Source: Vulcanimicrobiota bacterium | GTDB lineage: Bacteria > Vulcanimicrobiota > Vulcanimicrobiia > Vulcanimicrobiales > Vulcanimicrobiaceae | Assembly (NCBI GenBank): GCA_003168375.1 | Contig: PMSI01000003.1 | Coordinates: 868,001-932,000, forward strand | DNA: 64,000 bases | Direction: 5' to 3' | Shown: one piece after another, positions 19,229 to 38,784 of the stretch | Layout of the letters: each line of letters opens with the position of its first letter | Numbering within the stretch: position 1 is the stretch's first letter | Program-made: the position numbers and the translations under genes | Notes under the pieces: generated by a model | What the model was told of the DNA's origin: nothing | Databases searched by the model: none | Seen by the model: only the letters and a program-made list of their open reading frames with translations

Positions 19229-20056
19229 CTACTTGCTCTTCCGTTTCCGAACGATCATCTTGGTGGTGCGCTTGTTGCGGCGCGTCTTCTTGCCCATCGT
19301 CATCTGGCCCCAAGGCGTCGTCGGTGGACGACCCGAGGTCGAGCGTGCCTCGCCGCCGCCGTGCGGGTGATCGACGGGGTTCATCGCGATACCGCGCACC
19401 GACGGGCGCTTCCCGAGGTGGCGCTGGCGGCCGGCCTTGCCGATGATCTCGTTCTCGTGGTCGAGATTGCCGAGCTGGCCGATCGTGGCGCGGCAGACGA
19501 CCAGGATGCGACGCACCTCGCCCGACGGCATGCGCACCTGCGCGTAGTCGCCTTCCTTTGCCATCAGCTGCGCGGCACCGCCGGCCGAGCGGACGAGCTT
19601 CCCGCCTTGTCCAGGCTGCAGCTCGATGTTGTGGATCACCGTGCCGAGCGGGATGTTGCTGAGCGGAAGCGCGTTGCCGGTCTTGATGTCCGCGGCCGGG
19701 CCTGACTCGACCGAATCACCGACCTTGAGCAGCGCGGGCGCGAGGATGTAGCGCTTCTCGCCGTCGCGATAGTGCAGCAGCGCGAGCCGTGCGGTGCGGT
19801 TCGGGTCGTACTCGATCGCTGCCACCTTGGCCGGGATCCCGTCCTTGGAGCGCTTGAAGTCGACGATGCGGTACTGCTTGCGGTAGCCGCCGCCTTTGTG
19901 GCGCGTCGTGATATGGCCGTTGTTGTTGCGGCCCGAGTGCTTCTTGCGAACCTCGATCAGCGATCTCTCGGGATCCTTCTTCGTGATCTCGCTGAAGTCG
20001 GCGGTCGTGATGAAGCGGCGGGCAGCGCTGGTCGGTTTATACTTTTTAACAGCCAT
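19229..20056 (-). CDS. rplB: 50S ribosomal protein L2
   Basis: L2 is a core 23S rRNA-binding protein needed for peptidyl-transferase activity and subunit joining. The 275-aa product begins [20 protein letters not shown] and has [20 protein letters not shown] near residue 40. The universally conserved [15 protein letters not shown] with its critical histidine lies close to the C-terminus. Length and sequence are normal. It follows rplW by 1 nt. Confidence 0.98.
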
Positions 20057-20057
20057 C

Positions 20058-20366
20058 TTATTGCTCGAAGTAGTTCACGCCGCCGAGAGCGATCTTTTGC
20101 CCCGGAGCGATGGTGACGATGGCTTTTTTCCAGTCGGACTGCAGCCCGCTGGAGCGCTTGCCGCGGCGCGCGAAGTTCTTCTTCTTCCCGCCGATCTTGA
20201 TGGTGTTGATCTTGAGCACGGTCACGCCGAAGATCTCGGCGACCGCGGACTTGATCTGCGTCTTCGTCGCATGCGGGTTCACCTCGAAGGTGTACTGCTG
20301 CGCGACCGTGCCCGCCATCGACTTCTCGGAGATCAGCGGCGCAATGATGATATCGCGGGCTTCCAT
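20058..20366 (-). CDS. rplW: 50S ribosomal protein L23
   Basis: L23 is the exit-tunnel docking site for trigger factor and SRP. The 102-aa product begins [20 protein letters not shown] and has [20 protein letters not shown] and [20 protein letters not shown]. It shares one base with rplD at its start. Confidence 0.97.
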
Positions 20367-21025
20367 TACTTGTTCTCTCCGGAGAATTTCGCCGACAGGG
20401 CTTCGTGCGCGGCGGTGGTGATCACGAGCCGGCCGTAGCCGACCACGTCCTTCACGTCGAGCTCACCGGTGTGGGTCACCGTCACACGCTCGAGATTGCG
20501 GCCCGTGCGGCGCAGCGACGCGCCGACCGTCGCCAGCTCGTCCGTCGCGAACACGACCAGCGTGCGCGCCCCGTCCTTCGCGGCCTTCGGCGAACCGAAC
20601 AGCAGCGTGGCGAGCCCCTTCGTCTTCGACACGTCGAACTTCGTCGTGTCGAGGACGGTCACGCCGCCGCTCTGGTACTTGTCCGAAAGCGCGGCGCGCA
20701 TTGCGGCGCGGCGTTCCTTCTTGTTGAGGCTCGAGACGTACGAGCGCGGCTGCGGTCCGAAGACCACACCGCCGTGCGCCCACTGCGGCGAACGGATCGA
20801 ACCCTGGCGGGCGCGACCGGTCCCCTTCTGGCGCCACGGCTTGCGGCCGCCGCCGCGCACTTCGTCGCGCTTCTTCGTCGAAGCGGTACCGGCGCGCGGG
20901 TTGGCCAGCTCGCGGAAGACCGCGCGATAGATCGCGTTGGCCTTACCGTCGGTCGAACCGCTGAACGCAGCGGGCGTCTCTTGTTCGCGCACGACCTTGC
21001 CCTGCGCGTCGATCACCTGCGCCAT
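20366..21025 (-). CDS. rplD: 50S ribosomal protein L4
   Basis: L4 lines the exit tunnel and in some bacteria represses the S10 operon. The 219-aa protein has [20 protein letters not shown] and then the conserved loop [20 protein letters not shown], with [19 protein letters not shown] after it. It overlaps rplC and rplW by one base each. Confidence 0.98.
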
Positions 21026-21657
21026 TATGCGGTCACCTTCGTCTTGACGGACAGCTGCACGATGACGAGGCCATTCTTCGGGCCCGGCACCGGGCCGCGC
21101 ACCAGCAGCAGATTCCGCTCCGTGTCGGCGCGGACGACTTCGAGGTTTTGATGCGTGATGCGGTCGACGCCGTAGTGGCCCGGACGGCGGCTACCCTTGG
21201 GGGTGTGGCCGGCGTTGGTGTCGCCGTTCGAACCGGGCTGACGATGGATCATCGAGCCGTGGCTCGCACCGCCGCCGGAGAAATTGTGGCGCTTGATGCC
21301 GCCGGCGAAGCCGTGGCCCTTCGAGATCCCTTGGACGTCGACGCGATCGCCCTGCGCGAAACCGTCGACGGTGATCGTCGCGCCCAGTTCGACGCCCTCG
21401 ATCCCCGTGCGGAACTCGCGGATGTCGCGCTTGGGCGCGAGTCCGGCCTTCTTGTAGTGTCCCTGGAGCGCTTTGGTCAGCCGCGACGGTTTGACGTCGC
21501 CGAACGCCAGCGCGACGGCTTCGTAGCCGTCGGTCTCTTTCGTCTTCTTTTGTACCACGGTGCACGGACCAGCTTGGATCACGGTGACCGGAACGCTCCG
21601 GCCGTCTTCCGTGAACACGCTGGTCATCCCGACCTTGCGGCCGATGATGTTCTTCAC
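21025..21657 (-). CDS. rplC: 50S ribosomal protein L3
   Basis: L3 binds near the 3' end of 23S rRNA and starts assembly. I place the start at GTG 21657 (MKNIIGRKVGMTSVFTEDGR), because AAGGGA lies 9 nt upstream and the sequence then matches the usual L3 N-terminus; a GTG nine codons earlier is possible. GHGFAGGIKRHNFSGGGASH and the GSRRPGHYG segment are diagnostic. It is the first gene of the rplC-rpsM transcript here, with its own promoter, because rpsJ is 8.7 kb away. Confidence 0.96.
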   Translation of the reverse strand: MKNIIGRKVGMTSVFTEDGRSVPVTVIQAGPCTVVQKKTKETDGYEAVALAFGDVKPSRLTKALQGHYKKAGLAPKRDIREFRTGIEGVELGATITVDGFAQGDRVDVQGISKGHGFAGGIKRHNFSGGGASHGSMIHRQPGSNGDTNAGHTPKGSRRPGHYGVDRITHQNLEVVRADTERNLLLVRGPVPGPKNGLVIVQLSVKTKVTA

Positions 21658-21758
21658 GTTGATCGATCCCTTACGGATATCCACGGATCCTGGCGTATCA
21701 TCTACACCTTCGCCGCGGACGCCGAAAAGGCGCCCGCGTCGCGGACCACAACCGGGAT

Positions 21759-21787
21759 AGTGTACCGACCTTTCCGCACGACGTCAA
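21759..21787 (-). promoter_or_regulatory. Sigma70-type promoter of the rplC-rpsM operon
   Basis: On the minus strand TTGACG (complement of 21782-21787) and TACACT (complement of 21759-21764) are separated by exactly 17 nt. Transcription would begin near 21752, giving a leader of about 95 nt before rplC. Confidence 0.75.
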
Positions 21788-21839
21788 GCTCGGGGCGGCC
21801 TGGCGTTCCACGGGGCCCGGCGTTCGTTCAACCTCGATG

Positions 21840-21860
21840 TCACCCTGAGCTTGTCGAAGG
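21840..21860 (+). repeat. Dispersed 21-bp element upstream of rplC
   Basis: One mismatch to the other copies (TCACCC instead of TCATCC), otherwise the same 21 bases and same orientation. It lies about 50 nt upstream of the rplC promoter -35 and about 38 nt before the small ORF at 21898. Confidence 0.8.
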
Positions 21861-21897
21861 GTGGGGAGTGGTCGGCCGGTACGGGTAGGAGACATGC

Positions 21898-22038
21898 ATG
21901 ATTGTGCCGGTCTCCGCGTTGTCGACCGCTCCGGTTCAGACGCTTGCGCTGCCGCCGTACATTGGCCCGATTACGGCTCGGGATCCGGATGCGGATGGGG
22001 ACAACGACCTCGGCACGATCGTCGACACGTTCGCCTAG
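21898..22038 (+). CDS. Possible small protein (46 aa)
   Basis: A short frame starting MIVPVSALSTAPVQTLALPP and ending with an Asp/Gly-rich RDPDADGDNDLGTIVDTFA. A good ribosome-binding site (GGTAGGAG) lies 6-7 nt upstream of the ATG. The Asp/Asn-Gly spacing (DPDADGDND) resembles a calcium-binding loop of the dockerin/EF-hand kind, but one copy is weak evidence. No family is recognised. It is convergent with the CPBP protease gene. Confidence 0.45.
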   Translation: MIVPVSALSTAPVQTLALPPYIGPITARDPDADGDNDLGTIVDTFA

Positions 22039-22059
22039 ACGGCCTCGCTCAGGCCCAGT

Positions 22060-22734
22060 TCATTTGAAGATCAGGTGCGCCACGCTGGGCTCGAGGTTCC
22101 AGTAGATGATCGCGAGCGCGGCCAGGTCGTAGGCGGCATGCGCGCACATCAGCAGCCAGAGGCGGCCCGTGAACGCGAAGATCGTCCCGAACGTGAGTCC
22201 GGTGACGGTCGCCTGTTCGACGCCGGCGAGCCCCTGATCCGGGTAGTGGAGGAGCGCGAACAGCGCGGTGGTGGCGAGGACGATCGCGGCCTTCGAGCCG
22301 GCGCCTGAACCGAGGAGCTTGACGAGGCGCTCGAACAGGAAGCCCCGGAAGACGGTCTCCTCGCCGAAGCCGGCGGCCAGCATGGCGGAGACGGCGAACG
22401 GGAGCATGGCGGTGTTACCGGCCAGAGAGTGGTACGCGTGATTGACGGGGTCGGCGCCGATCAGCGGCATCACCACCGCCTTCGTCACGAGCTTGAGCGC
22501 GCAGCCCAACGCGACGCCGAGAACCAAGTCGGCGATCCAGCTTCTCGGCCGCACGTAGCCGATCTCTCGCCATGGAGTCTGTGACAGTCGAGCCCAGAGG
22601 AGCACCAGGAGGCCGCCCGCGGGGACGACGACGACGCTGTCGACGGGGAGGTTCCCGGCCGCCAGGATGAGGACGATCGCGAGGATTCCGAGCGGGCCGA
22701 ATCCTCGCAGAGCGGCGGCAGTGTCGCTTGGCAT
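22060..22734 (-). CDS. CPBP family intramembrane metalloprotease
   Basis: 224-aa membrane protein of the CAAX-protease/bacteriocin-processing (ABI) family. The motifs are in order: FGEETVFRGFLFERL (EExxxR, glutamate base and metal site), FALLHYPDQG (first His) and CAHAAYDLAAL (second His). About six membrane helices are predicted. The start ATG at 22734 (MPSDTAAALRGFGPLGIL) begins just before the first helix; a longer upstream frame is non-homologous. Family roles include prenylated-peptide processing and self-immunity; the substrate here is unknown. Confidence 0.85.
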   Translation of the reverse strand: MPSDTAAALRGFGPLGILAIVLILAAGNLPVDSVVVVPAGGLLVLLWARLSQTPWREIGYVRPRSWIADLVLGVALGCALKLVTKAVVMPLIGADPVNHAYHSLAGNTAMLPFAVSAMLAAGFGEETVFRGFLFERLVKLLGSGAGSKAAIVLATTALFALLHYPDQGLAGVEQATVTGLTFGTIFAFTGRLWLLMCAHAAYDLAALAIIYWNLEPSVAHLIFK

Positions 22735-22813
22735 GCTAACCTGCACGTACTCGCGTCCGGATCGAGTGATGCAAAAGGGTGCGCTGCGCCCGACGGCAAG
22801 AGCCTCGAGGAGC

Positions 22814-23380
22814 TCAGCGAGAAGCGTCTGGCAGCGTAATTCCGCGGTAAATCTTCTCCCAGTCGAGGACCAGACCGTCGAAGGGTTCGAGCGCCCACGC
22901 ACCGCGCGCATCGCGCTCTTCGACGGTACCGTTCGCGCGATGGAGCACTACGCGGCGTTTTATTGGATGCACGACCATCACGACGCGCGCGCCGAACTCG
23001 AGATAGATCTCGACTTTTCGACGTAGACGCCCCGGACGATCGCCGGGCGACATGATCTCCACCGCCAAGTCAGGCGCGATCCGCGGCCGTTGAGACTCAT
23101 CGTCCATGCTTGACGGCAAGCGGGCGTAGGACATGTAGTCGACGTCGGGGAGAAGCGACGACCACTTGCCGTCTGGGCGTAGGAAGTAGAAGCGTACCTC
23201 CGCTCCCACTGAACCATGCTCGCCGGCCCATTCGTCGAGCTGCGCACCGATACGGACCGCGAGTCGCCCGTGCGGACGATAAGGGCTCACGTCGGGCTGT
23301 GTCTCGCCGTCGAGGACGTCGAGGTACGGTTTCTCTTCGTCCAGTTTCGCGAGCCAGCGGGGAATCGGTGTGCTAACCAT
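22814..23380 (-). CDS. Uma2 family (DUF820) putative endonuclease
   Basis: 188-aa protein with the PD-(D/E)xK-like core of the Uma2/DUF820 family: PDLAVEIMSPGDRPGRLRRK followed by VEIYLEFGARVVMVVHP. The predicted active residues are Asp in PDLAVE, Glu in VEIMS and Lys in RRKVE. The N-terminal part (HGRLAVRIGAQLDEWAGEHG) matches the usual first helix. The family is very abundant in cyanobacteria and related phyla and has no well-proven biological role. It is 79 nt upstream of the CPBP gene on the same strand. Confidence 0.8.
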   Translation of the reverse strand: MVSTPIPRWLAKLDEEKPYLDVLDGETQPDVSPYRPHGRLAVRIGAQLDEWAGEHGSVGAEVRFYFLRPDGKWSSLLPDVDYMSYARLPSSMDDESQRPRIAPDLAVEIMSPGDRPGRLRRKVEIYLEFGARVVMVVHPIKRRVVLHRANGTVEERDARGAWALEPFDGLVLDWEKIYRGITLPDASR

Positions 23381-23489
23381 CTCACACCGAGCCTATCACG
23401 CGTCCTGAGGCGCGAACAAGGACGCGGTCTCCGGTCTATCCGTAGAACTACGGACGCCGCACCTGAACGCCATTGCCTATCATCAACGC

Positions 23490-24143
23490 ATGGCGACTAT
23501 CGGCATCTCCACCGTCGGCGACCTCGACGGCTTCGTTCGAACGGCCAAGAGTCGATCGGTTCCCGATGACGCCCTCGTCGCGCTCTTGCGCCAGAACGGC
23601 TGGTCGGAGCGGCGCATCTACGCCAGCCTTTCGGCATACTACGGCGAGTTGCTCGGGGTCGCGCCGCCGAGCCGCAGCGGCCGCGGCGAGCAAGCGCGTG
23701 AAGCATTCCTGTATCTGCTGAACTTCATCACGCTGGGATTCTGGACCGTGGCGCTCGGCCGGATCTTCATCGAGCTGATCGCACGCCGGTTCCCGGATGC
23801 GGCGCATCCCGTCTACGGCCATTCGGTCGTCTACGACGTCAGCTGGCAGCTCGCGACGCTGATCGTCGCGTTCCCATGCTTCCTCGTGATCGGCCGGCTC
23901 ATCGCGGGCGAGCTGCGCCGCCGTCCGGACGCCTTCGACTCGGGGATCCGTGCGTGGCTCACGCACGCCGCGCTCGTGATCGCCGGTTTGATTATGCTCA
24001 GCGACGGAATCTTCTTCGTCAGCGCGTTCTTGCAGGGCGAGCTGACCACGCAGTTCATTTTGAACACGATCGTGGTCATCGGCCTGGGCGGCGGTGTCTT
24101 CGCCTACTACCTGCGCACGCTGCGCCCCGCGAACGCCGAGTGA
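23490..24143 (+). CDS. DUF5671 domain membrane protein
   Basis: 217-aa protein. The N-terminal ~60 residues are soluble (LRQNGWSERRIYASLSAYYG, a short helical domain). Four hydrophobic helices at about 72-95, 112-135, 150-178 and 184-205 follow. The first helix opens REAFLYLLNFITLGFWTVAL, which resembles DUF5671. Function is unknown. Its TGA overlaps the GTG of the next gene, so they are coupled. Confidence 0.7.
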   Translation: MATIGISTVGDLDGFVRTAKSRSVPDDALVALLRQNGWSERRIYASLSAYYGELLGVAPPSRSGRGEQAREAFLYLLNFITLGFWTVALGRIFIELIARRFPDAAHPVYGHSVVYDVSWQLATLIVAFPCFLVIGRLIAGELRRRPDAFDSGIRAWLTHAALVIAGLIMLSDGIFFVSAFLQGELTTQFILNTIVVIGLGGGVFAYYLRTLRPANAE

Positions 24144-24601
24144 CGACCACCGAGAAGATCGGCACGCTGACCGCGTGCGTGCTCGTCGCGGCCGGCGTGA
24201 TCGCGGGGTGCTCGCTCGTCGGTTCGCCCCAGCACGCGCGTGCCCAAGCCTTCGATCGCCAGCGCAGCGACGATCTCGAGCGGGTCGCGCAGCGACTGCG
24301 TATCCGTTACGCGACCGCCGGGCCGTCGCGATCGCCGCTGCTGCCCCCTGCGCTGCCGCACGATCTCCGCGCCTTGCGGTCGGATGGTTCCGATGCGACG
24401 CGCGACCCCGCGACCGGCGCGGTGTACCGGTATCTCCGCGACGATGCGCGGCGGTTTCGGCTGTGCGCGACGTTCGCGCTCGCGGGCGAAGGCACGATCG
24501 ACACGGTCGTCGGATTCGAGCGGCATCCGGCCGGGCCGAGCTGCTTCAGGTTGGACGTCCTCGAAGCCGGCCCGCCGGGGGATGCGGTGCCGGACCGCTG
24601 A
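24140..24601 (+). CDS. Putative secreted or membrane-anchored small protein
   Basis: 153-aa product starting at GTG 24140, overlapping the preceding stop (GTGA). An N-terminal hydrophobic segment (LTACVLVAAGVIAGCSL) ends in AGC, a possible lipobox or simple anchor. The rest resembles small periplasmic proteins with a YRYLRDDARRFRLCATFALA motif. No enzyme family is recognised. Coupling to the DUF5671 protein suggests the two act together at the membrane. Confidence 0.65.
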   Translation: MTTTEKIGTLTACVLVAAGVIAGCSLVGSPQHARAQAFDRQRSDDLERVAQRLRIRYATAGPSRSPLLPPALPHDLRALRSDGSDATRDPATGAVYRYLRDDARRFRLCATFALAGEGTIDTVVGFERHPAGPSCFRLDVLEAGPPGDAVPDR

Positions 24602-24611
24602 AACCGGCGGT

Positions 24612-25838
24612 ATGACCACAACCGCCACGCCGGGCACGCACCGAGCGAACGTGCCGGCGCCCTCGCCGACCGACTTCCTCGGGATCGACGCACTTCTCCA
24701 CGATGACGAGCGCCTGATCCGCGATACGGTCCGCGCGTTCGTGCGCGATCGCGTCCTTCCGAACATCGCCGAGTGGTTCGAGGACCATACCTTCCCGCGC
24801 GCGATGGCGAAGGAACTCGGCGACCTCGGGCTGCTCGGGATGCATCTGCACGGCTACGGCTGCACGGGGACGACCGCCGTTGCGTACGGCCTCGCGTGTC
24901 TCGAGCTCGAAGCCGGCGACTCGGGATTCCGCTCGTTCGTCTCGGTGCAGGGCTCGCTCGCAATGTACGCGATCTGGGCGCACGGTTCGGAAGAGCAGAA
25001 GACGACGTGGCTGCCCCGCATGGCGACCGGCGATGCGATCGGCTGTTTCGGCCTGACCGAGTGGGATTTCGGCAGCGACCCGGGCGGAATGCGCACGACC
25101 GCGCGGCGCGACGGCTCGGACTACGTGCTGAACGGCTCGAAAGCGTGGATTACCAACGGCGGCATCGCCGACGTCGCGATCGTGTGGGCGAAGGCCGATG
25201 CGGAGGACGGCAAGAGCGGTGGGACGATCCGCGGTTTCGTCGTGCCGAAAGGCACCAAGGGTTTCTCGACGCGCAACATCGAGAAGAAGCTCTCGCTGCG
25301 CGCCTCGATCACGTCGGAGCTGAGTCTCGAGGACTGCCGGCTACCGGCCGACGCGATGCTGCCGAACGTCAAGGGGCTGCGCGGTCCGCTGTCGTGCCTG
25401 AACGAAGCGCGCTACGGTATCGTGTGGGGCGCGCTCGGCGCGGCGCGCGCGTGCTACGAGAGCGCGCTCGAATACGCGAAGACGCGCGTGCAGTTCGACA
25501 AACCGATCGCGGCGTTCCAGTTGACGCAGGAGAAGCTCGTCAACATGATGCTGGAGATCAACAAAGGGCTGCTGGTCGCGCTGCACGTCGGACGGCTCAA
25601 GGATGCCGGCAATGCCCACTCCTCGCACGTCTCGTTCGGCAAGCTCAACAACGTGCGCGAAGCGCTGGCGATCTGCCGCGAGGCGCGCACGATCCTGGGC
25701 GCGAGCGGAATCACCCTGGAATACCCGGTGATCCGGCACATGAACAACCTCGAAAGCGTGCTGACCTACGAAGGCACGAGCGAAGTCCACACCCTGATCC
25801 TCGGCCAAGCGATCACCGGCGAAAGCGCATTCAGCTAA
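24612..25838 (+). CDS. gcdH: Glutaryl-CoA dehydrogenase-type acyl-CoA dehydrogenase
   Basis: 408-aa FAD-dependent acyl-CoA dehydrogenase. It matches the glutaryl-CoA subgroup in several places: SFVSVQGSLAMYAIWAHGSE, IGCFGLTEWDFGSDPGGMRT, KLSLRASITSEL, NEARYGIVWGALGAA and the catalytic-glutamate segment TYEGTSEVHTLILGQAITG. GCDH oxidises and decarboxylates glutaryl-CoA to crotonyl-CoA in lysine and aromatic degradation. The ATG 24612 starts MTTTATPGTHRANVPAPSPT; a longer frame from 24240 overlaps the previous gene and is spurious. It stands alone without pathway neighbours. Confidence 0.88.
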   Translation: MTTTATPGTHRANVPAPSPTDFLGIDALLHDDERLIRDTVRAFVRDRVLPNIAEWFEDHTFPRAMAKELGDLGLLGMHLHGYGCTGTTAVAYGLACLELEAGDSGFRSFVSVQGSLAMYAIWAHGSEEQKTTWLPRMATGDAIGCFGLTEWDFGSDPGGMRTTARRDGSDYVLNGSKAWITNGGIADVAIVWAKADAEDGKSGGTIRGFVVPKGTKGFSTRNIEKKLSLRASITSELSLEDCRLPADAMLPNVKGLRGPLSCLNEARYGIVWGALGAARACYESALEYAKTRVQFDKPIAAFQLTQEKLVNMMLEINKGLLVALHVGRLKDAGNAHSSHVSFGKLNNVREALAICREARTILGASGITLEYPVIRHMNNLESVLTYEGTSEVHTLILGQAITGESAFS

Positions 25839-25889
25839 CGAGAGGCCCCGTCCGCGAGGACAGGTACCTCCCGCCACGTTCGGCTGCGG

Positions 25890-28800
25890 TTAATGGACCG
25901 ACACGGTCGCATTGCCGTCGGAGCAATTCGTGGCGGCGCTGCTGCTGCAAACGCGTACCTGGAACGTGTCGCTCACCGTGCCGGGGTTCAAGCCGACCGA
26001 AATCTGCCCCGAGCTGAGCACGGAAGGTGTCGCGTTCGAGGTGTGCCAGGCGTTGGCGCCAGCGCCCTGAGTGTACTTGAACTGCACGATGTCACCGGAC
26101 GCAAACGAGTTGCCAAAGATGGTCAGTGTTTGCGTTTGGCCGTTCGCCGTCATCGACGTGGGCGAGAGCGACGAAACGCTCGGCGTCACCACCGCTGGAC
26201 TGACCGTCACGGTCGCGTTGCCGTCAGAGCAATTCGTGGCGGCGCTGCTGCTGCAAACGCGTACCTGGAACGTGTCGCTCACCGCGCCGGGGTTCAAGCC
26301 GACCGAGATCTGCCCCGAGCTGAGCACGGAGGGCGTCGCGTTCGAGGTGTGCCAGGCGTTGGCGCCAGCGCCCTGAGTGTACTTGAACTGCACGATGTCA
26401 CCGGACGCAAACGAGTTGCCAAAGATGGTCAGTGTTTGCGTTTGGCCGTTCGCCGTCATCGACGTCGGCGAGAGCGACGAGACGCTTGGTGTCGCGACCA
26501 CCGGACTCACCGACACGGTCGCGTTTCCGTCAGAGCAATTCGTCGCCGCACTGTTGCTGCACACGCGGACCTGGAACGTGTCTGTCACCGTGCCCGGGTT
26601 CAAGCCGACCGAAATCTGCCCCGAGCTGAGCACGGAGGGTGTCGCGTTCGAGGTGTTCCACGAGTTCGCACCGGCGCCCTGAGTGTACTTGTACTGCACG
26701 ATATCGCCGGATGCAAACGAGCTACCGAAGATCGTCAACGTTTGAGTCTGGCCATTCGCCGTCATCGACGTCGGCGAGAGCGACGAGACGCTCGGCGTCA
26801 CCGCCGCTGGACTGACCGATACGGTCGCGTTGCCGTCAGAGCAATTCGTCGCCGCGCTGCTGCTGCACACGCGGACCTGGAACGTGTCGCTCACCGTGCC
26901 TGGGTTCAAGCCGACCGAGATCTGCCCCGAGCTGAGGACGGACGGTGTCGCGTTCGAGGTGTTCCAGGAGTTCGCGCCGGCGCCCTGAGTAAACTTGTAC
27001 TGCACGATGTCGCCGGACGCGAACGAGCTCCCGTAGATCGTGAGCGTCTGCGTTTGACCGTTCGCGAGCATCGAAGTGGGTGAGATAGACGAAACCGTCG
27101 GAAGAAAATCCGGTGGGATGACGAGGACAGAAGCGGCACCGTCGGAGCAGTTCGTTGCGGCGCTGCTGCTACAAACCCGCACGTTGATATTGTCCGATAC
27201 CGTCCCTGGGTTCAATCCGACCGAAATCTGATTTGGGCTGTTGATTTGGGGCGTTGCATTCGATGTGTTCCAAACATTCGCCCCTGCACCTTGGCCCCAT
27301 TTGAACTGCACGATGTCGCCCGCGGCGAACGAGCTGCCGTTTATCGTGAGGGTCTGTTGCTGGCCATTGGCGAACATCTGCGTCGGCGACACTGATGACA
27401 CGGTCGGCGAGCCGCCGCCGCCCGACGTCGTGACCACGACATTCTTGCTCCCGTCAGAGCAGCTCGTCGAGGTACTGTCGGTGCAGATGCGTACAAAGAT
27501 CGTATCACTGACCGTACCGGGGTTCATGGACACCGTGATCTGCGAAGCGTTGACCACGTTCGGCGTGGCATTCGACAGATGCCAACTTCCCGCACCTAAG
27601 CCTTGACCCCATTCGAACTCTACAACGTCGCCGGCGGCGAACGAGTTGCCGTTGATGGTCAGGACCTGTGCTTGACCGTTTGCATTCACCGACGACGGCG
27701 AAACGGACGAGACGGTCGGCACACCCGACGATGGCGCAGAAACGACGACGTTGACCAACCCGTCGGAACACGCCGTTGCTGCGCCGTTGCTGCATACGCG
27801 TACGTCGATCACGTCCGACACATTGCCGGGGTTCATCGAGACCGCGATCTGATTAGGATTGTTCACGGTCGGCATAGCGTTTGACGGATTCCACGTGTTC
27901 GCGCCGAGTCCCTGACCCCACTTGAATTGCACCACGTCGCCAGCCGCGAACGAATTACCGGAGATCACGAGCGTCTGCGCTTGACCGTTGGCCGTCATCG
28001 ACGTCGGTGACAGCGAAGAGACGAGCGGGGTCGGGTTCGGACCCACTATCGTATTAGTTCCGGCTTGATGAAGCCATGCAGTAATTCCGTACGGGCGTCC
28101 CGTGACAACTCCATTTTCGACACTAAGCATATTGACGCCCGTCGAACTGTTGTTCTGCTCCATCACATAGATCGTTCCCTTGCCGATTGAGGGGATCGAT
28201 GCGCCGGTCACGACCGATGTATGCCCATAATTGCACTTTGGAACGACCACGTCGCAATTCGGGACCTTGGTCGATGACACCGAATTGCCGTCACCGTACT
28301 GGATGATATCCCCCGGTACTGGAAGCGGACCCATACCGTTGTTCGGAATCTTCGCAAGAACCGGTCCGCGATAGTTGGTCGCGATGTCGAAGCCGTCCGC
28401 GCCGTACACCGGGATACGATATGCGATATACATGAAGCGCATGCTCAGCTCGACGCATTCCCACTCCAACGCTTGATTTGGTGAATTGCCAAATCCCGTG
28501 AACGTGACCGACAGGTCCTTCTGAATCTTGTCTAGCGGTAGCGGCCCACATGCGCGGACCCCGAGGTACACAGCGCCTGGGTCTGGCAACGGTTTAGAAT
28601 TACTGTTGTGGAAGGAGTCGCATAGGTGACTCACTCCGGCAGAGTCGTTCCACCATGGTGGTGCCGGTAATGATGCTCCACCCCCGAAGCCTCCGGTACT
28701 TACAGACCCTTTATAAATGCCCCCGGCGACCCCGATGGCGTAAACAGTCGACGCGGAATTTGAGGATAAGCTGACTGCCGCACCCGGCTGGACTGTCCAC

Positions 28801-29648
28801 GTCGTCGAAGACAAATCGTAATAATAGATTGGATAGCTTCCGTCAGCGTTCTGGAGGTATCCGAGCGCAAAGATACCCCCGATGATCGTAGGTGCCACTT
28901 CGATCGCCGCGCCCGGAACTTGAACGAACCCTGTGCTGGGCGAATAGTAAAAGATTGAATTGCCGGCATTCACGACCCAAATGCCGCCCGGCGAAAGGCC
29001 GCCCGTATATGACCCAGTGTCCCAGGACGCAGCAACTCGTACCGCCGCCCCGGGCATCTGCGTCCAGGCTCCGCCAGCAAAACGCCAGATTCCCCGGCCG
29101 TACGGGTTGCCGCCCTGATTCGAGATGACATAAACCGAGCCGTCTGCGCCAACGGAAATATCGCTCGCACCACCCGCGATACCGTTCCACGTTGTCCCGT
29201 CGAATGAATAGATGCTGCCTGCGGAGTTAACGACCCAAGGCGTTCCGTCGGGTCCCACGGCGATGCGCATCGCGGCGCCGGGTACGTTCGTCCACGTCCC
29301 ATTCGCGTAGTGCCAGATCGATCGGTCCGGTCCCGACCCGAGGCTCGAGAGCACCCAAACGGATCCATCGGGGCTCGTGGCTGCGACGATTGCGCCCCCG
29401 GGAAGTTGAGACCAACCAACGGGTGCGATTGCGCTCCTCGTCGAGCGGAACGACGTCATCACGGACGACGGCAAACGCTCGGTCTTCACCATCGCCGGCG
29501 GCCGAATCGATCCCGGCGAAACCGACATGGCGGTGGGAACAGCCACACGCGTTGAAGGCATGATATGGCTCGCGCGACCACCGCAACCGGCTGCAATAAG
29601 CAAAAGTCCGAGGCTGATACCTCGAAAAAGCGATACCGTCGCTTGCAT
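25890..29648 (-). CDS. Giant lipoprotein: tectonin-like propeller, CHAP domain and seven TIG repeats
   Basis: 1252-aa exported protein. A lipoprotein signal ends LLLIAAGCGGRASH. Residues 75-330 hold WxQxPGAA-type repeats (WSQLPGGAIVAATSPDGSVW), a tectonin-like beta-propeller. Residues ~335-545 form a CHAP-type amidase: the nucleophile Cys is in LEWECVELSMRF, then PVPGDIIQYG, GHTSVVTG (catalytic His) and VMEQNNS (Glu/Asn). Seven ~102-aa IPT/TIG repeats complete the protein, each with two cysteines (RVCSSSAATNCSDG). A surface peptidoglycan amidase or adhesin is likely. The N-terminal two thirds are lower in GC than the neighbours. GGGGGG lies 8 nt before the ATG. Confidence 0.8.
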   Translation of the reverse strand: MQATVSLFRGISLGLLLIAAGCGGRASHIMPSTRVAVPTAMSVSPGSIRPPAMVKTERLPSSVMTSFRSTRSAIAPVGWSQLPGGAIVAATSPDGSVWVLSSLGSGPDRSIWHYANGTWTNVPGAAMRIAVGPDGTPWVVNSAGSIYSFDGTTWNGIAGGASDISVGADGSVYVISNQGGNPYGRGIWRFAGGAWTQMPGAAVRVAASWDTGSYTGGLSPGGIWVVNAGNSIFYYSPSTGFVQVPGAAIEVAPTIIGGIFALGYLQNADGSYPIYYYDLSSTTWTVQPGAAVSLSSNSASTVYAIGVAGGIYKGSVSTGGFGGGASLPAPPWWNDSAGVSHLCDSFHNSNSKPLPDPGAVYLGVRACGPLPLDKIQKDLSVTFTGFGNSPNQALEWECVELSMRFMYIAYRIPVYGADGFDIATNYRGPVLAKIPNNGMGPLPVPGDIIQYGDGNSVSSTKVPNCDVVVPKCNYGHTSVVTGASIPSIGKGTIYVMEQNNSSTGVNMLSVENGVVTGRPYGITAWLHQAGTNTIVGPNPTPLVSSLSPTSMTANGQAQTLVISGNSFAAGDVVQFKWGQGLGANTWNPSNAMPTVNNPNQIAVSMNPGNVSDVIDVRVCSNGAATACSDGLVNVVVSAPSSGVPTVSSVSPSSVNANGQAQVLTINGNSFAAGDVVEFEWGQGLGAGSWHLSNATPNVVNASQITVSMNPGTVSDTIFVRICTDSTSTSCSDGSKNVVVTTSGGGGSPTVSSVSPTQMFANGQQQTLTINGSSFAAGDIVQFKWGQGAGANVWNTSNATPQINSPNQISVGLNPGTVSDNINVRVCSSSAATNCSDGAASVLVIPPDFLPTVSSISPTSMLANGQTQTLTIYGSSFASGDIVQYKFTQGAGANSWNTSNATPSVLSSGQISVGLNPGTVSDTFQVRVCSSSAATNCSDGNATVSVSPAAVTPSVSSLSPTSMTANGQTQTLTIFGSSFASGDIVQYKYTQGAGANSWNTSNATPSVLSSGQISVGLNPGTVTDTFQVRVCSNSAATNCSDGNATVSVSPVVATPSVSSLSPTSMTANGQTQTLTIFGNSFASGDIVQFKYTQGAGANAWHTSNATPSVLSSGQISVGLNPGAVSDTFQVRVCSSSAATNCSDGNATVTVSPAVVTPSVSSLSPTSMTANGQTQTLTIFGNSFASGDIVQFKYTQGAGANAWHTSNATPSVLSSGQISVGLNPGTVSDTFQVRVCSSSAATNCSDGNATVSVH
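25893..28045 (-). repeat. Seven ~306-bp tandem repeats encoding TIG domains
   Basis: The 3' part of the lipoprotein gene is seven in-frame units of about 306 bp. The last three units in reading order (plus-strand 25893-26800) are nearly identical at DNA level, while the first three are diverged, indicating recent homogenisation or expansion at the 3' end. Confidence 0.85.
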
Positions 29649-29895
29649 TTGCTAGCCCCCCGCTGCGTTGCCACCCCGAATCGGAAAGGCTCCGACCCGC
29701 GCTTGGTCAGTTCGGCCGAGTCAAGCTGGCACCTCCGGTCATATTATGACTTCGCAAGGAAAAAGCGATTTCTTAACCGTCCGTCGTGGTTACCATCTAA
29801 ACGGACTGTGCAGATTTCGTGACGCCACGACGAACGGTCGGCTCTATTGAACTAACTGTCGTCGAGGAATGACGCGTGACGTCGCAACAATCGGG
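29649..29895. promoter_or_regulatory. AT-richer intergenic region upstream of the giant lipoprotein
   Basis: This 247-nt gap contains an AT-rich patch around 29740-29800 (including TAATAT on the minus strand near 29752) that probably holds the lipoprotein promoter. No good -35/-10 pair with standard spacing was found and no gene is visible. Confidence 0.3.
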
Positions 29896-30321
29896 CTAGC
29901 GTTTTAGGACGCGGGCGAGTTTGTCGAACAGGCCTTCGATCGCACGCTCGTGCTGTTCTTCGAGCCGCCGCCACAGCAGCCGCCCCTGCACGTCGTCGAG
30001 CGTCGCGGTCAGCCGGTGCCGCACCGTCACCTTGCGTCCGTCGACGTCGAGCGAGAAGCCGTGCGTGCCGTCGACACCTTCGGTGTCGATCCGCCATACG
30101 ATGCGCTTCTCGGGCTCCACGTCGGCCAGCACCGCGTGCAGGCCCCCGTGCCACTCCTCCGTCGTGCCGGGCGTCAGCGGTCCCGGGCTGCGTATGAACG
30201 GCTGCGAGGCGAACGGCCAGATGCGATCCTGCGACGTGCCGAGCTCGGTGAGCAACTCGTAGATCCGTCGCGCGGTTCCGTTGAAAGTCCGTTCGTACAT
30301 CACGTCGATCGGCGTCGGCAT
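29896..30321 (-). CDS. SRPBCC (START-like) family protein
   Basis: 141-aa protein with a likely SRPBCC helix-grip fold: an N-terminal strand and helix (MYERTFNGTARRIYELLTEL), then WPFASQPFIRSPG and WHGGLHAVLADVEPEKRIVW, ending in a long amphipathic helix (LEEQHERAIEGLFDKLARVL). Members bind lipids or hydrophobic ligands; the specific ligand is unknown. I start at ATG 30321, because a TTG seven codons earlier lies in the rpsJ terminator. It lies after that terminator, so it needs its own promoter or read-through. Confidence 0.65.
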   Translation of the reverse strand: MPTPIDVMYERTFNGTARRIYELLTELGTSQDRIWPFASQPFIRSPGPLTPGTTEEWHGGLHAVLADVEPEKRIVWRIDTEGVDGTHGFSLDVDGRKVTVRHRLTATLDDVQGRLLWRRLEEQHERAIEGLFDKLARVLKR

Positions 30322-30340
30322 TTCCGGTGCTTTCCCCGGC

Positions 30341-30368
30341 AAAAGAAAAACCCCGGCTTTCGCCAGGG
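30341..30368 (-). terminator. Intrinsic terminator of the rpsL-rpsJ operon
   Basis: Read on the minus strand, CCCTGGC pairs with GCCGGGG across a GAAA tetraloop (7 bp with one G-T wobble), followed directly by TTTTTCTTTT. It begins 25 nt after the rpsJ stop. This is a textbook Rho-independent terminator, so rpsJ ends the str transcript and does not read into rplC. Confidence 0.9.
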
Positions 30369-30392
30369 TCTTCTGTCAGGGTGACGTTGCCT

Positions 30393-30701
<309 letters not shown>

Positions 30702-30720
30702 ATCTTCGTTTCTCTCGTGG

Positions 30721-31923
<1,203 letters not shown>

Positions 31924-31961
31924 GATGCCTTGTTTTCTGGTCCTTTAGCTGCGTGTTGTGA

Positions 31962-34070
31962 CTAAGCGGTGGCGAGTTTCTTGCCTTGCGCCTTGGCGAC
32001 GATCTCTTCTTCGACCGACTTGGGCGCTTTCTCGTAGCGGGCGAATTCCATCGTGTAGGTGGCGCGGCCCTGGGTCGCGCTGCGAAGGTCGGTTGCGTAC
32101 CCGAACATCTCGCTCAGCGGAATGTTCGCCTTGATCACGACCGCCCCGCCGATCGCCTCGTCCTGCGATTGGATCTGGCCGCGACGGCGCATGAGGTCAC
32201 CGTTGACCGCGCCCATGTAGTCGCGCGGTGCGGTGACTTCGACGCCCATGATCGGTTCTAGGAGAATCGGTCCCGCCGCACGGTTCGCCTCTTTGAACGC
32301 CATCGAGCCGGCGATCTTGAAGGCCATTTCGCTGGAGTCGACGTCGTGGTACGAACCGTCGAACGCCGTCACCTTGAAGTCGAGGACGGGGTAGCCCGCG
32401 AGCACGCCGGACTCGGCAGCCTCGCGAATCCCTTCCTGAACCGGCTTCTGGTACTCTTTGGGGACGGCGCCGCCGACGATGGCCCACACGAAGACATAGC
32501 CCGTGTTCGGCGCGCCTGGTTCGAGGCGGATCCAGACGTCGCCGTACTGGCCCTTACCGCCGGTCTGCCGGATGAACTTGCCCTGTTTTTCGACCTTCTT
32601 CGTGATCGCTTCTTTGTACGCGACTTGCGGCTTGCCGACGTTCGCTTCGACCTTGAACTCCCGTTTGAGGCGGTCGAGGATGATCTCCAGATGGAGCTCG
32701 CCCATCCCGGCGATGATCGTCTGCTGGGTCTCCTCGTCGGTCCGCATACGGAACGTCGGGTCTTCTTGTGCGAGACGTGTCAGCGCGATGCCCAGCTTGT
32801 CCTGATCGCCCTTGGTCTTCGGCTCGATCGCCTGCGAGATCACCGGCTCCGGGAACACGATGTTCTCGAGCAGGATCGGGTGCTTCTCGTCGCAGAGCGT
32901 GTCACCGGTGCGCGTGTCGGAGAGGCCGACCGCCGCCGCGATGTCGCCCGCGCCGATCGCGTCGATATCTTCGCGATGGTTCGCATGCATCCGCAGGATA
33001 CGCCCGATGCGCTCCTTGCGGCCGCTGCGCGCGTTGTACACGTACGAGCCCTTTTCGAGCACGCCGGAGTACACGCGGAAGTACGTCAGGTTGCCGTACG
33101 GATCGGTCGCGATCTTGAACGCCAGCGCGGAGAAGTACTCCTCGTCGCGCGGCTGGCGCGTCATGTCGGAGTCGTCCTTCGGATCCTTGCCGGTGATCGG
33201 CTTCGCGTCGATCGGCGATGGCAGGAAGTCGACGACGGCGTCGAGCAGCGGCTGCACGCCCTTGTTCTTGAACGCCGATCCGCAGAGCATCGGCAGGACC
33301 TTGCCCTGGATCGTCGCCTTGCGCAGAGCCGCGTGGAGGCGGTCGACTGGGATCTCCTGGCCGTCGAAGAACATCTCGAGCAGCGCATCGTCCTGTTCGG
33401 CGATCGCCTCGATCAGCGCCCGGCGCCATTCCTGCGCGGTCGTAAACAGCTCGCCGTCGGCCGCGGTGACCGGCGTCCTGTCGGACATCGAACCGAGGTC
33501 GTCCGTGTAGATGATCTTGCTCATCGTGAACAGGTCGACGACGCCCAGGAAGTCGGCCTCGGCGCCGATCGGAACTTGGATCGGGGTCGCCGGCGCGCCG
33601 AGGCGCGCGCGGATCTGCTTGACGCAGTTGAAGAAGTCCGCGCCGACGCGGTCCATCTTGTTGACGAAGATGACGCGCGGAACGGCGTACTTGTTGGCCT
33701 GGCGCCAGACCGTTTCGGACTGCGGCTGCACCGCGGCGACGGAATCGAAGAGCGCGACCAAGCCGTCGAGGACGCGCAGCGAGCGCTCCACCTCGACGGT
33801 GAAGTCCACGTGGCCTGGCGTATCGATAATGTTGATACGCGTCTCGCGCCAGGTGCAGGCGGTCGCAGCGGACGTGATCGTGATCCCGCGCTCCTGCTCC
33901 TGAACCATCCAGTCCATGGTAGCGGCGCCGTCGTGGACCTCGCCGATCTTGTGCGTGCGGCCGGTATAGAAAAGAATCCGCTCTGTCGCCGTCGTCTTGC
34001 CGGCGTCGATGTGAGCAGCGATCCCGATATTGCGGGTTCGTTCGAGCGGATATTCGCGCTTGAGAGGCAT
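31962..34070 (-). CDS. fusA: Elongation factor G
   Basis: Translocation GTPase. The 702-aa protein has the P-loop [20 protein letters not shown], the G3 region [20 protein letters not shown] and G4 NKMDRVG. Domains II-V follow in order; [20 protein letters not shown] marks domain V. Length and order are normal. It lies 21 nt downstream of rpsG in the str-operon order. Confidence 0.98.
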
Positions 34071-34091
34071 GATGCTAAGAGAGGGTGCCCA

Positions 34092-34562
34092 TCACCAACG
34101 GTAGTGGGCGAAGGCCTTGTTGGCTTCAGCCATCTTGTGCGTGTCCTCGCGCTTTTTGATCGACGCGCCCTGGTTGTTGGAAGCGTCCATCAGCTCGTTC
34201 GCGAGCTTCTCGGTCATCGACTTGCCGGGGCGCGAGCGTGCGAACGTGATCAGCCAGCGCATCGCCATCGCTTGACGGCGGTCCGGACGGACCTCCATCG
34301 GCACCTGGTACGTCGCGCCGCCGACGCGTCGCGGACGAACCTCGACGAGCGGCATCGCGTTGCCGAGCGCCTGCGTGAAGATATCCATCGGATCGCGGCC
34401 GGTCTTGGTCGCGATCAGCTCGAGCGCATCATAGGTGATCAGCTCGGCGACAGACTTCTTGCCGCGCAGCATCACCTTATTGATGAAGCGCGCGAGCACT
34501 TTCGAGCCGAACTTGGGATCGGGCAGAATCGGTCGTTTGGGGACGGGGCCTTTACGCGGCAT
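34092..34562 (-). CDS. rpsG: 30S ribosomal protein S7
   Basis: S7 nucleates assembly of the 30S head. The 156-aa product begins [20 protein letters not shown] and contains [20 protein letters not shown] and the C-terminal [20 protein letters not shown]. Length is typical. It is 15 nt after rpsL. Confidence 0.98.
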
Positions 34563-34577
34563 GAGAAACGCGGTTCC

Positions 34578-35021
34578 TTACTTCTTCTTCGTAGCGCGCT
34601 TGGCGCCGTACTTCGAGCGGCCTTGCTTGCGGTTCGCGGCGCCCGAGGTGTCGAGCGTTCCGCGGATGATGTGATAGCGCACGCCCGGGAGATCTTTGAC
34701 GCGCCCGCCGCGGATCAGAACCACCGAGTGCTCCTGAAGATTGTGGCCGATCCCCGGGATGTAGGCCGTGACCTCTTCGCCGTTGGTCAGGCGCACGCGC
34801 GCGACCTTACGGAGCGCCGAGTTCGGCTTCTTCGGGGTGATCGTCTTCACTTGAGTGCACACGCCGCGGCGCTGCGGGTTTCCCGCGACCTCGAAGGTCC
34901 GGTTGGGCAGGTCGGGGTGGCCCGGCTTGGGTCCGGTCGAAACGACGCGGAAAGCCGGGGTCTTCACCTTTTTCTGCTGTTTCTCGCGGCCCTTACGGAC
35001 CAGCTGGGAGATCGTCGGCAC
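34578..35021 (-). CDS. rpsL: 30S ribosomal protein S12 with an internal insertion
   Basis: S12 controls decoding accuracy at the A site. The 147-aa protein begins [20 protein letters not shown] and has the core [20 protein letters not shown] (including the lysine tied to streptomycin resistance) and [20 protein letters not shown]. Between the N-terminus and RRGVCTQ lies a longer segment ([20 protein letters not shown]) than in the 124-aa E. coli protein; Bacillus has a shorter insertion at the same place. The start is GTG at 35021 with GGAG 7 nt upstream. It is the first gene of the str operon. Confidence 0.97.
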
Positions 35022-35082
35022 TCAGTACTCCGGAACGCACACGAAAGCGGCCGAACCACGGCGGTCCGGCCGGAACCTCCGA

Positions 35083-35111
35083 AGCATACCACCTCCCGTG
35101 GAGAGCGTCAA
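35083..35111 (-). promoter_or_regulatory. Sigma70-type promoter of the rpsL operon
   Basis: TTGACG (complement of 35106-35111) and TATGCT (complement of 35083-35088) are separated by 17 nt on the minus strand. The start would fall near 35076, about 55 nt before the rpsL GTG. It has the same -35 as the rplC promoter. Confidence 0.8.
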
Positions 35112-35144
35112 CGCGGAAGCAGCCCGCCCGGGGCCACCCCCTTG

Positions 35145-35166
35145 TCATCCTGAGCTTGTCGAAAGG
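35145..35166 (+). repeat. Dispersed element upstream of the rpsL promoter
   Basis: A fourth copy of the TCATCCTGAGCTTGTC element, here with one extra A near its end (GAAAGG), so 22 nt. It lies between the rpsL promoter and the end of the downstream SDR gene, in the same orientation as the other copies. Confidence 0.8.
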
Positions 35167-35197
35167 TTGCCGAGGGATCAGCCTAAGCAAGCGCCTT

Positions 35198-35929
35198 TCA
35201 GACGAGGCCGACGCCGACGGAGCGTCCACCGTCGATCAGCAGCGTCTGGCCGCTGACGTAGCTCGATTCGTCGCTCGCGAAGAAGGTCGCGACGGCGGCG
35301 ATCTCTTCGGGCTGTCCGATGCGGCCGAGCGGGATCGCGCTCACCGCCTTGTCGCGGACTCGGTCGGGGACGACGTCGGTCATCGGCGTTTCGATGAAGC
35401 CCGGCGCGAGCGCGTTCACACGGATACGCCGCTTCCCGAGTTCGAGCGCGAGCGTGCGAGCGAGCGAGACGACGCCGCCCTTCGACGCGGAGTAGTTCGC
35501 CTGACCGATGTTTCCGAGCCACGAGCGCGACGAGGTGAGCACGATCGAGCCGCCATCCTCCATCTCGCGCGCGACGGCCTGGGCGACGATGAACGAGCCG
35601 GTGAGATTGACGCGGATGACGTCGTCCCATTGCTGCAGCGTCATCTTGCTCGCGAGCGCGTCCTTGGTGATCCCGGCGAAGTGCGCCAGAACATCGATCT
35701 TGCCGAAGCGCTCTTTGGCCTGCGCGACGGCACTCTCGACGCTGGCCTGGTCGGCGACGTCGCAGGCGATCCCGAGCCCGCCCGCCGGCGCTTCGGGCGC
35801 TTTCAGATCGAGCGCGACGACGTGCGCTCCTTCGTCCGCGAAACGGCGTGCCGTCGCGCGCCCGATCCCGCTCGCCGCCCCGGTCACGATCGCGACGCGG
35901 CCGTCGAGGCAGCCTCCCTTGGTTGTCAT
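35198..35929 (-). CDS. Short-chain dehydrogenase/reductase, FabG-like
   Basis: 243-aa classical SDR. TGAASGIGRATARRFADEGA is the TGxxxGIG cofactor motif, HFAGITKDAL the NAG-like motif, and SSRSWLGNIGQANYSASKGG gives the catalytic Ser, Tyr and Lys. The C-terminus ALAPGFIETPMTDVVP is typical of 3-oxoacyl-ACP reductases. AGGAG is spaced 7 nt from the ATG at 35929, better than from the one at 35935. It follows the MFS exporter gene almost directly, so the two form an operon; whether it acts in fatty-acid or secondary metabolism is open. Confidence 0.85.
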   Translation of the reverse strand: MTTKGGCLDGRVAIVTGAASGIGRATARRFADEGAHVVALDLKAPEAPAGGLGIACDVADQASVESAVAQAKERFGKIDVLAHFAGITKDALASKMTLQQWDDVIRVNLTGSFIVAQAVAREMEDGGSIVLTSSRSWLGNIGQANYSASKGGVVSLARTLALELGKRRIRVNALAPGFIETPMTDVVPDRVRDKAVSAIPLGRIGQPEEIAAVATFFASDESSYVSGQTLLIDGGRSVGVGLV

Positions 35930-35931
35930 GG

Positions 35932-38615: not shown

Positions 38616-38672
38616 CCCCGTAACCGGGCTGTAACCAGCGCTCGCTATCGTTAGCGTAGGCGATGGGGTGCA

Positions 38673-38705
38673 TGACGGCTCGCACCCGACGAGGTGCAGC
38701 CGTCA
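38673..38705 (+). promoter_or_regulatory. Strong hairpin in the leader of the papain-like protease operon
   Basis: TGACGGCT (38673-38680) pairs with AGCCGTCA (38698-38705), and inside them GCACC (38682-38686) pairs with GGTGC (38693-38697) around a 6-nt loop, with a single bulged C. It ends 79 nt before the operon start. There is no T-run, so it is either a Rho-type end signal for the upstream gene or a structured 5' leader. Confidence 0.5.
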
Positions 38706-38784
38706 CGGCCTTAACGTCGCTCCGGCGCACCCGAGGAATCGGATTCCGCTTCTTTCGTTGTGCCTGTTACGCCGAGAGGTGACG

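What the first reader, a model, noticed from the sequence alone, without database searches (positions are those of the whole stretch)
25890..29648. Tectonin propeller, CHAP amidase and seven TIG repeats fused in one lipoprotein
The gene combines a lipoprotein signal, a beta-propeller of WxQxPGAA repeats, a cysteine peptidoglycan-amidase-type domain and a TIG stalk. This is a surface enzyme on a stalk, suited to attacking or binding neighbouring cells, and it sits inside the ribosomal cluster with lower GC than its neighbours, suggesting acquisition.
Basis: partly seen in the sequence, partly recalled or inferred. Interest (0 to 1): 0.6.

Follow-up and report, generated by a model that had tools for sequence, protein, structure and literature searches.

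The report
Swappable lectin-headed surface lipoproteins
The gene encodes a lipid-anchored protein with a sugar-binding-type propeller, a wall-cutting-type enzyme domain and a seven-repeat tail, and it turns out to be one of a soil-bacterial family in which the same propeller head is joined to many different enzymes, so it may show how an uncultured phylum assembles and swaps its surface tools.

Summary
In detail: one 1252-aa ORF (25890-29648, minus strand) with a lipobox, a six-bladed tectonin propeller, a CHAP domain and seven TIG-like repeats. CHAP rests on a 51%-identical relative that passes the Pfam cut-off; the AlphaFold model of CHAP failed.

The larger find is that the N-terminal module (lipobox, conserved linker, propeller; ~320 aa) is shared by 70 ORFs in 13 genomes of one Eremiobacterota family, joined to unrelated C-terminal cargo: subtilisin, kumamolisin-like, HExxH, M23 and CHAP-type peptidases, GH64 glucanase, PLD-like, ice-binding, Vgb/NHL propellers and others. 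N-modules group by genus, not by cargo. DNA similarity between sisters with different cargo ends at the module's edges.

The window gene sits in a 4.06-kb insert absent from the same slot in two relatives; cassettes elsewhere in the genus carry fragments of that slot's flanks, so acquisition is supported.

Best reading: a surface docking head with exchangeable payloads, perhaps glycan-binding. Glycan binding, surface exposure and CHAP activity are inferred. New variant of a known kind.

The parts
25890..29648 (-). Whole gene: lipoprotein, tectonin propeller, CHAP, seven TIG-like repeats (1252 aa)
29583..29648 (-). Lipoprotein signal peptide, lipobox AAGC, Cys22 (+2 residue Gly)
   Evidence: column Cys in 58 of 63 members, no Asp at +2 among those 58
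29454..29528 (-). Conserved linker aa 41-65 (SVSPxxIxxAPMxxTxxLPxSxM in the family); mean pLDDT 96-97 over aa 41-60 in the model
28698..29417 (-). Six-bladed tectonin propeller, aa 78-317
28044..28676 (-). CHAP domain, about aa 325-535; Cys398 (28455-28457), His476 (28221-28223), Glu497 (28158-28160) as putative catalytic residues
   Evidence: the Glu role is recalled from Gsp amidase
25893..28031 (-). Seven TIG / NF058597 repeats, aa 540-1252; the last four are a recent 306-bp tandem array
25833..29894 (.). 4062-bp insert relative to L200 (G095:C153), where 19 bp lie between the same two flanking genes
29896..30342 (-). Left neighbour, polyketide-cyclase/SRPBCC-like gene (PF10604 E 1.7e-5, below cut-off); its last 123 bp recur beside another cassette in G095
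24240..25838 (+). Right neighbour, acyl-CoA dehydrogenase ORF (true start probably further in); 3' fragments recur beside cassettes in G095 and G088
30393..30701 (-). rpsJ, left edge of the rpsJ-rplC slot
21025..21684 (-). rplC, right edge of the slot

Best explanation
The gene is one member of a clade-restricted family of lipoproteins built as a fixed head plus exchangeable payload. The fixed N-terminal module (lipid anchor, structured linker, tectonin-type six-bladed propeller) docks the protein on an envelope or matrix surface, probably by binding glycan as tectonin 2 does; the C-terminal payload does the chemistry. In this member the payload is a CHAP-type cysteine amidase or endopeptidase followed by a rod of seven TIG-like repeats that may reach outward or bind a partner. 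New members arise when the module DNA is joined to a new payload and whole cassettes move between chromosomal slots. Shown: the shared module, its fold, the payload variety, the mismatch of module and payload histories, the insert against empty sites. Inferred: lipidation, surface exposure, glycan binding, CHAP activity and its target.
For: 70 ORFs with the module in 13 genomes; 67 of 70 keep the N-terminal part. Unrelated payloads by Pfam in 31 scanned members. Propeller fold closest to tectonin 2. Tectonin 2 site VI uses Ser200, Asn216, Tyr222 and Trp3 (PMC6359319 figure legend); by my alignment the Asn and aromatic positions are kept in two of six units: Asn141 in 59 of 63 members with Trp154 in 59 of 63, and Asn227 in unit IV, where the five commonest patterns, all with Asn, cover 50 of 63. 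Holding the two genus-g1 HExxH payload carriers together on the module tree is rejected (p-AU 9.4e-13) although those payloads are 62% identical. DNA similarity of sisters with different payload starts near the start codon and ends at the module end. The CHAP relative is joined instead to a Vgb propeller.
Against: No test of sugar binding, localisation or enzyme activity is possible here. Four of six propeller units lack the tectonin 2 Asn. Neighbour genes are not clearly rich in glycan-synthesis functions: GDP_Man_Dehyd 5 of 109 against 2 of 109 control genes. The CHAP AlphaFold model failed (pLDDT 36.6) and its fold search found nothing. Module-payload mismatch could also come from gene conversion that homogenises modules within a genome. 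The groups in the AU tests were chosen after seeing a tree.
Confidence: 0.5

Rival explanations
1. The module is a display or sorting header only: the linker and propeller carry any C-terminal domain to the outside of the outer membrane, and the propeller binds no sugar.
For: Linker invariants (Pro45, Met53) are as strict as any propeller residue and the linker is modelled as ordered; payloads share nothing but being extracellular-type domains; 4 of 6 tectonin sites lack the Asn.
Against: Asn141, Trp119, Trp154 and Trp195, by alignment the ligand-site or adjoining positions, are kept in 59, 63, 59 and 63 of 63, which a mere scaffold need not keep.
Confidence: 0.25
2. The window protein faces the periplasm and remodels the cell's own peptidoglycan; the propeller is a protein-binding platform.
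For: CHAP lies next to the anchor; M23 payload or M23 neighbour lipoprotein in relatives; the cultivated family member has an ordinary diderm wall with LPS (PMC9758169).
Against: GH64, kumamolisin-like, ice-binding and PLD-like payloads on the same header have no obvious wall role; patchy presence in 13 of 99 family genomes does not fit a housekeeping role.
Confidence: 0.15
3. Offensive weapon: the family is an antibacterial or antifungal kit, with the propeller aiming at foreign glycans.
For: Payloads include wall peptidases, GH64 beta-1,3-glucanase, PLD-like domains and proteases; tectonin domains of a human protein bind bacterial LPS (PMC2707011 abstract).
Against: About a third of members carry Vgb/NHL propellers (21 of 61 labelled), which are not obvious weapons; no recurrent partner gene was found.
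Confidence: 0.1

Closest known systems
Tectonin lectins (Laccaria bicolor tectonin 2, 5fsb/5fsc; carp fish-egg lectin, 4ruq)
   Same: Six-bladed four-stranded propeller, sequence profile match E 5e-22 and 5e-11, Z 24.9 and 23.7
   Different: Here lipid-anchored, with a conserved 25-residue linker and a C-terminal payload; only two of six units keep the ligand Asn
CHAP amidases, nearest solved relative E. coli glutathionylspermidine amidase (3a2z, 2io7)
   Same: Cys and His aligned in a 3-sequence profile match, E 0.0034; relative passes Pfam CHAP
   Different: Joined to a tectonin module and TIG rod; remote; substrate unknown
Polymorphic toxin systems (PMC3482391, search listing and start of abstract only)
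   Same: Constant N-terminal part (recalled), very diverse C-terminal parts generated by recombination with cassettes
   Different: Payloads are extracellular enzymes and propellers rather than the toxins described; no recurrent partner gene seen; lipoprotein
Streptomyces 'tectonin domain-containing proteins' on plasmids
   Same: Tectonin repeats, 28-31% identity over up to 74% of the module
   Different: Linker not matched; payloads not examined

Membership tests
Tectonin propeller (PF19193) | Pfam model over its cut-off | tested here: met
   54.9 bits against 30
Tectonin propeller (PF19193) | Six-bladed tectonin fold | tested here: met
Tectonin propeller (PF19193) | Glycan (O-methylated sugar) binding | not testable with these tools
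   Site residues partly kept; no binding test
CHAP (PF05257) | Pfam model over its cut-off in this protein | tested here: not met
   18.3 bits against 26; met by the 51%-identical relative L134 (34.7 bits)
CHAP (PF05257) | Catalytic Cys and His in register | tested here: met
   Cys398 and His476 align with Gsp amidase and L134; the more distant L136 has Ala for the Cys
CHAP (PF05257) | CHAP fold | tested here: inconclusive
   AlphaFold model from 3 sequences failed
TIG (PF01833) / NF058597 | Model over cut-off, repeated | tested here: met
   84.6 bits against 20.9; 129.3 against 30
Bacterial lipoprotein | Lipobox Cys after a hydrophobic stretch, conserved | tested here: met
Bacterial lipoprotein | Lipidation and outer-surface location | not testable with these tools
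   no experiment
Polymorphic toxin system | Constant N-terminus with diverse C-termini | tested here: met
Polymorphic toxin system | Adjacent immunity genes | tested here: inconclusive
   no shared partner gene across loci in an ORF clustering, not searched with immunity models
Polymorphic toxin system | C-terminal toxin domains | tested here: not met
   Pfam shows extracellular hydrolases, propellers, ice-binding and unknowns in the 31 members scanned

The most novel reading that the evidence does not exclude
A new polymorphic surface system: a lectin-headed lipoprotein chassis, specific to one Eremiobacterota family, that acquires enzyme payloads by recombination at the module edge and spreads as cassettes between slots such as the rpsJ-rplC gap. 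It would be a non-toxin counterpart of polymorphic toxins, used to equip the cell surface for whatever polymer or neighbour is at hand.
Probability: 0.35. Interest if true: 0.75.

Novelty: new variant of a known kind. Interest (0 to 1): 0.62.

Why it matters
Eremiobacterota are common in oligotrophic soils and almost uncultured, and how they use polymers or meet neighbours is little known. A single header attached to proteases, wall hydrolases, glucanase and other domains predicts a binding target that can be tested with one recombinant propeller, and gives a marker for finding further payload enzymes. The empty and filled sites give a natural case for how surface-protein cassettes are exchanged.

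Tried and rejected
CHAP structure: AlphaFold from 3 sequences failed; the Foldseek search with that model gave nothing with E below 1, as expected for a poor model. More CHAP relatives: none confirmed in viral contigs, one weak Streptomyces plasmid hit, 3 of 149 genomes in the phylum. RNA element upstream: no Rfam match in 20000-36000. Glycan-cluster idea: methyltransferase and sugar-kinase-like ORFs near three paralogs in the genome (labels are my reading) suggested that the module sits in surface-glycan clusters; against 109 control genes (sampled from 182) the difference was small, so it was dropped as evidence. Partner gene: none recurring across the loci. Plain low-GC argument: paralogs have GC3 0.71-0.86, so low GC is only partly special to this gene. 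For L103, put in the S53 group by clustering, a PDB search gave nothing, and for the NlpC-like label of L088 a PDB search gave nothing meaningful: both labels are mine. The HExxH (M30-like) label rests on the motif and a weak match to lugdulysin (E 0.0011).

Full report
Observation. Pfam gives seven TIG stretches (E 4.7e-24), Tectonin (1.1e-14) and a CHAP match below the curated cut-off (0.0033). NCBIfam gives the repeats a closer name, NF058597 choice-of-anchor Z repeat (E 4.1e-38). The order is lipobox Cys22, linker, propeller (78-317), CHAP (about 325-535), seven repeats (540-1252). Repeats 4-7 are 88-97% identical in protein and form a 306-bp tandem array. The rod is therefore distal to the enzyme.

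Propeller. A 63-row alignment of the module (A1) gave a confident model (pLDDT 88.9, pTM 0.85). Foldseek and VIA-align put tectonin 2 of Laccaria bicolor first (Z 24.9, rmsd 1.9, 212 residues), as did a profile search of PDB sequences (E 5.3e-22). A review describes tectonin 2 as a six-bladed lectin for O-methylated glycans, with Ser200, Asn216, Tyr222 and Trp3 in site VI (PMC6359319, passages). By the profile alignment and my own register, the Asn is kept in unit II (59 of 63) and in most members in unit IV; in their commonest patterns units I and III have Ser with Trp, units V and VI mostly Gly. Two sites are therefore plausible, not shown.

CHAP. The domain has few relatives: 3 of 149 genomes of the phylum, the window's own included. 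One, L134 in a genus member (G091), is a lipoprotein-type protein with the same domain (51% identity in the alignment) followed by a Vgb propeller and no tectonin module. It passes Pfam CHAP (34.7 bits against 26). A profile of three sequences finds E. coli glutathionylspermidine amidase (E 0.0034), aligning Cys398 with the Cys in WQCVEF and His476 with the His in GHVAII. Glu497, in MEQNN, as third residue is recalled from Gsp amidase. A remote relative, L136, has Ala for the Cys.

The family. The module occurs in seven ORFs of the window's own genome, one of them cut short at 258 aa, and in 70 ORFs of 13 genomes overall; 67 keep the N-terminal part. A few of the 70 are fragments at contig ends or split frames. 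In the class, 20 of 117 genomes have some match; the full module is in 13, all of one GTDB family with 99 genomes held. A scan of GTDB species genomes with the closer alignment gave 30 loci, all from records titled Candidatus Eremiobacterota or WPS-2. Cys22 is kept in 58 of 63 rows and the residue after it is Ser 39, Gly 12, Ala 4, Lys 2, Thr 1, never Asp. The cultivated relative Vulcanimicrobium alpinum has an LPS-covered outer membrane (PMC9758169, passages); it is placed in Baltobacteraceae (PMC10582173, search listing). That the window's family is Baltobacteraceae is my inference.

Payloads. Pfam on 31 members shows subtilisin, M23, GH64, PLD-like, ice-binding, Vgb/NHL propellers, BNR/sortilin-like, Lipoprotein_15, beta-helix, pro-kumamolisin and unknowns. 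One member's payload matches kumamolisin (E 6e-31). Other members were labelled by clustering: of 63 tree rows, two were left unlabelled (cut at contig ends) and 61 fall in 19 classes, 21 of them Vgb/NHL.

Module against payload. On the module tree the 15 genus-g1 rows form one set (support 100), and the four copies in genome G088, with four different payload classes, form one set (100). Trees holding together the two g1 HExxH carriers, all four HExxH carriers, the GH64 carriers or the S53 carriers are rejected (p-AU 9.4e-13, 2.7e-57, 1.1e-4, 5.2e-9), although the g1 HExxH payloads are 62% identical. In pairs with related modules and different payloads, DNA similarity (67-81%) mostly covers the module and stops at its end: for L086/L087, positions 554-1540 against a module at 601-1551. 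Of the pairs run, L092/L093 also showed offset matches of 62-70% further downstream, and the two controls with the same payload (S8 pair, HExxH pair) were similar throughout. Payload exchange at the module edge explains this; module gene conversion within genomes is not excluded.

The slot. In the five other genus members that have both genes on one contig, rpsJ and rplC are about 5 to 17 kb apart. In G095:C153 the flanking genes match the window at 90-91.5% but only 19 bp separate them where the window has 4062 bp (25833-29894). In G090 the two flank fragments abut. Of the six other members whose slot I read (G087, G088, G089, G091, G094, G095; G088 on two contigs), none has a module gene between those two neighbours, but G088 has one, with an NHL payload, on the far side of the dehydrogenase, followed by an M23 lipoprotein-like gene and a second dehydrogenase 3' fragment. 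G095:C151 carries a module::Vgb gene elsewhere, flanked by 123 bp of the left neighbour (95% identity) and 151 bp of the right one (88%), both ending at the same edges as the window's insert. Cassettes thus seem to move with slot flanks. These are metagenome assemblies, so a chimera in G095:C151 is possible.

Mechanism. Shown: shared module, fold, varied payloads, incongruence, empty sites. Inferred: that the head docks to glycan and that the CHAP cuts wall or other amides. I rank lectin docking (0.5) over display only (0.25), own-wall remodelling (0.15) and weapon (0.1).

Print. Searches for tectonin with lipoprotein or Eremiobacterota, and for Eremiobacterota with predation, peptidase or lectin terms, listed no paper on such a family; only the listed rows were seen, and most subscription journals are not held.

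Noticed in passing
window 21025-30701: The rpsJ-rplC junction of the S10 operon is broken by a variable slot of about 5-17 kb in the genus members checked.
   Followed up: partly
window 38668-39339: ORF matching Peptidase_C70, AvrRpt2-like papain-like cysteine protease (23.7 bits against a cut-off of 19).
   Followed up: no
L089 3992-6136 (G000:C4, about 555 kb): Tectonin-like repeats at the C-terminus of what looks like a serine-protease-type domain: reversed order to the family.
   Followed up: no
G094:C3, about 97.4-97.9 kb: A 5572-aa open frame contains tectonin-like matches.
   Followed up: no
L136 2002-3261 (G047): CHAP relative with the catalytic Cys replaced by Ala, possibly inactive.
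   Followed up: partly
G000:C7:151921-152214: Another CHAP-domain gene (328-aa frame) in the same genome.
   Followed up: no
L207-L224 neighbour genes: Vgb_lyase propellers recur next to module genes: 6 of 109 neighbours, not among the 25 listed families of 109 control genes.
   Followed up: partly
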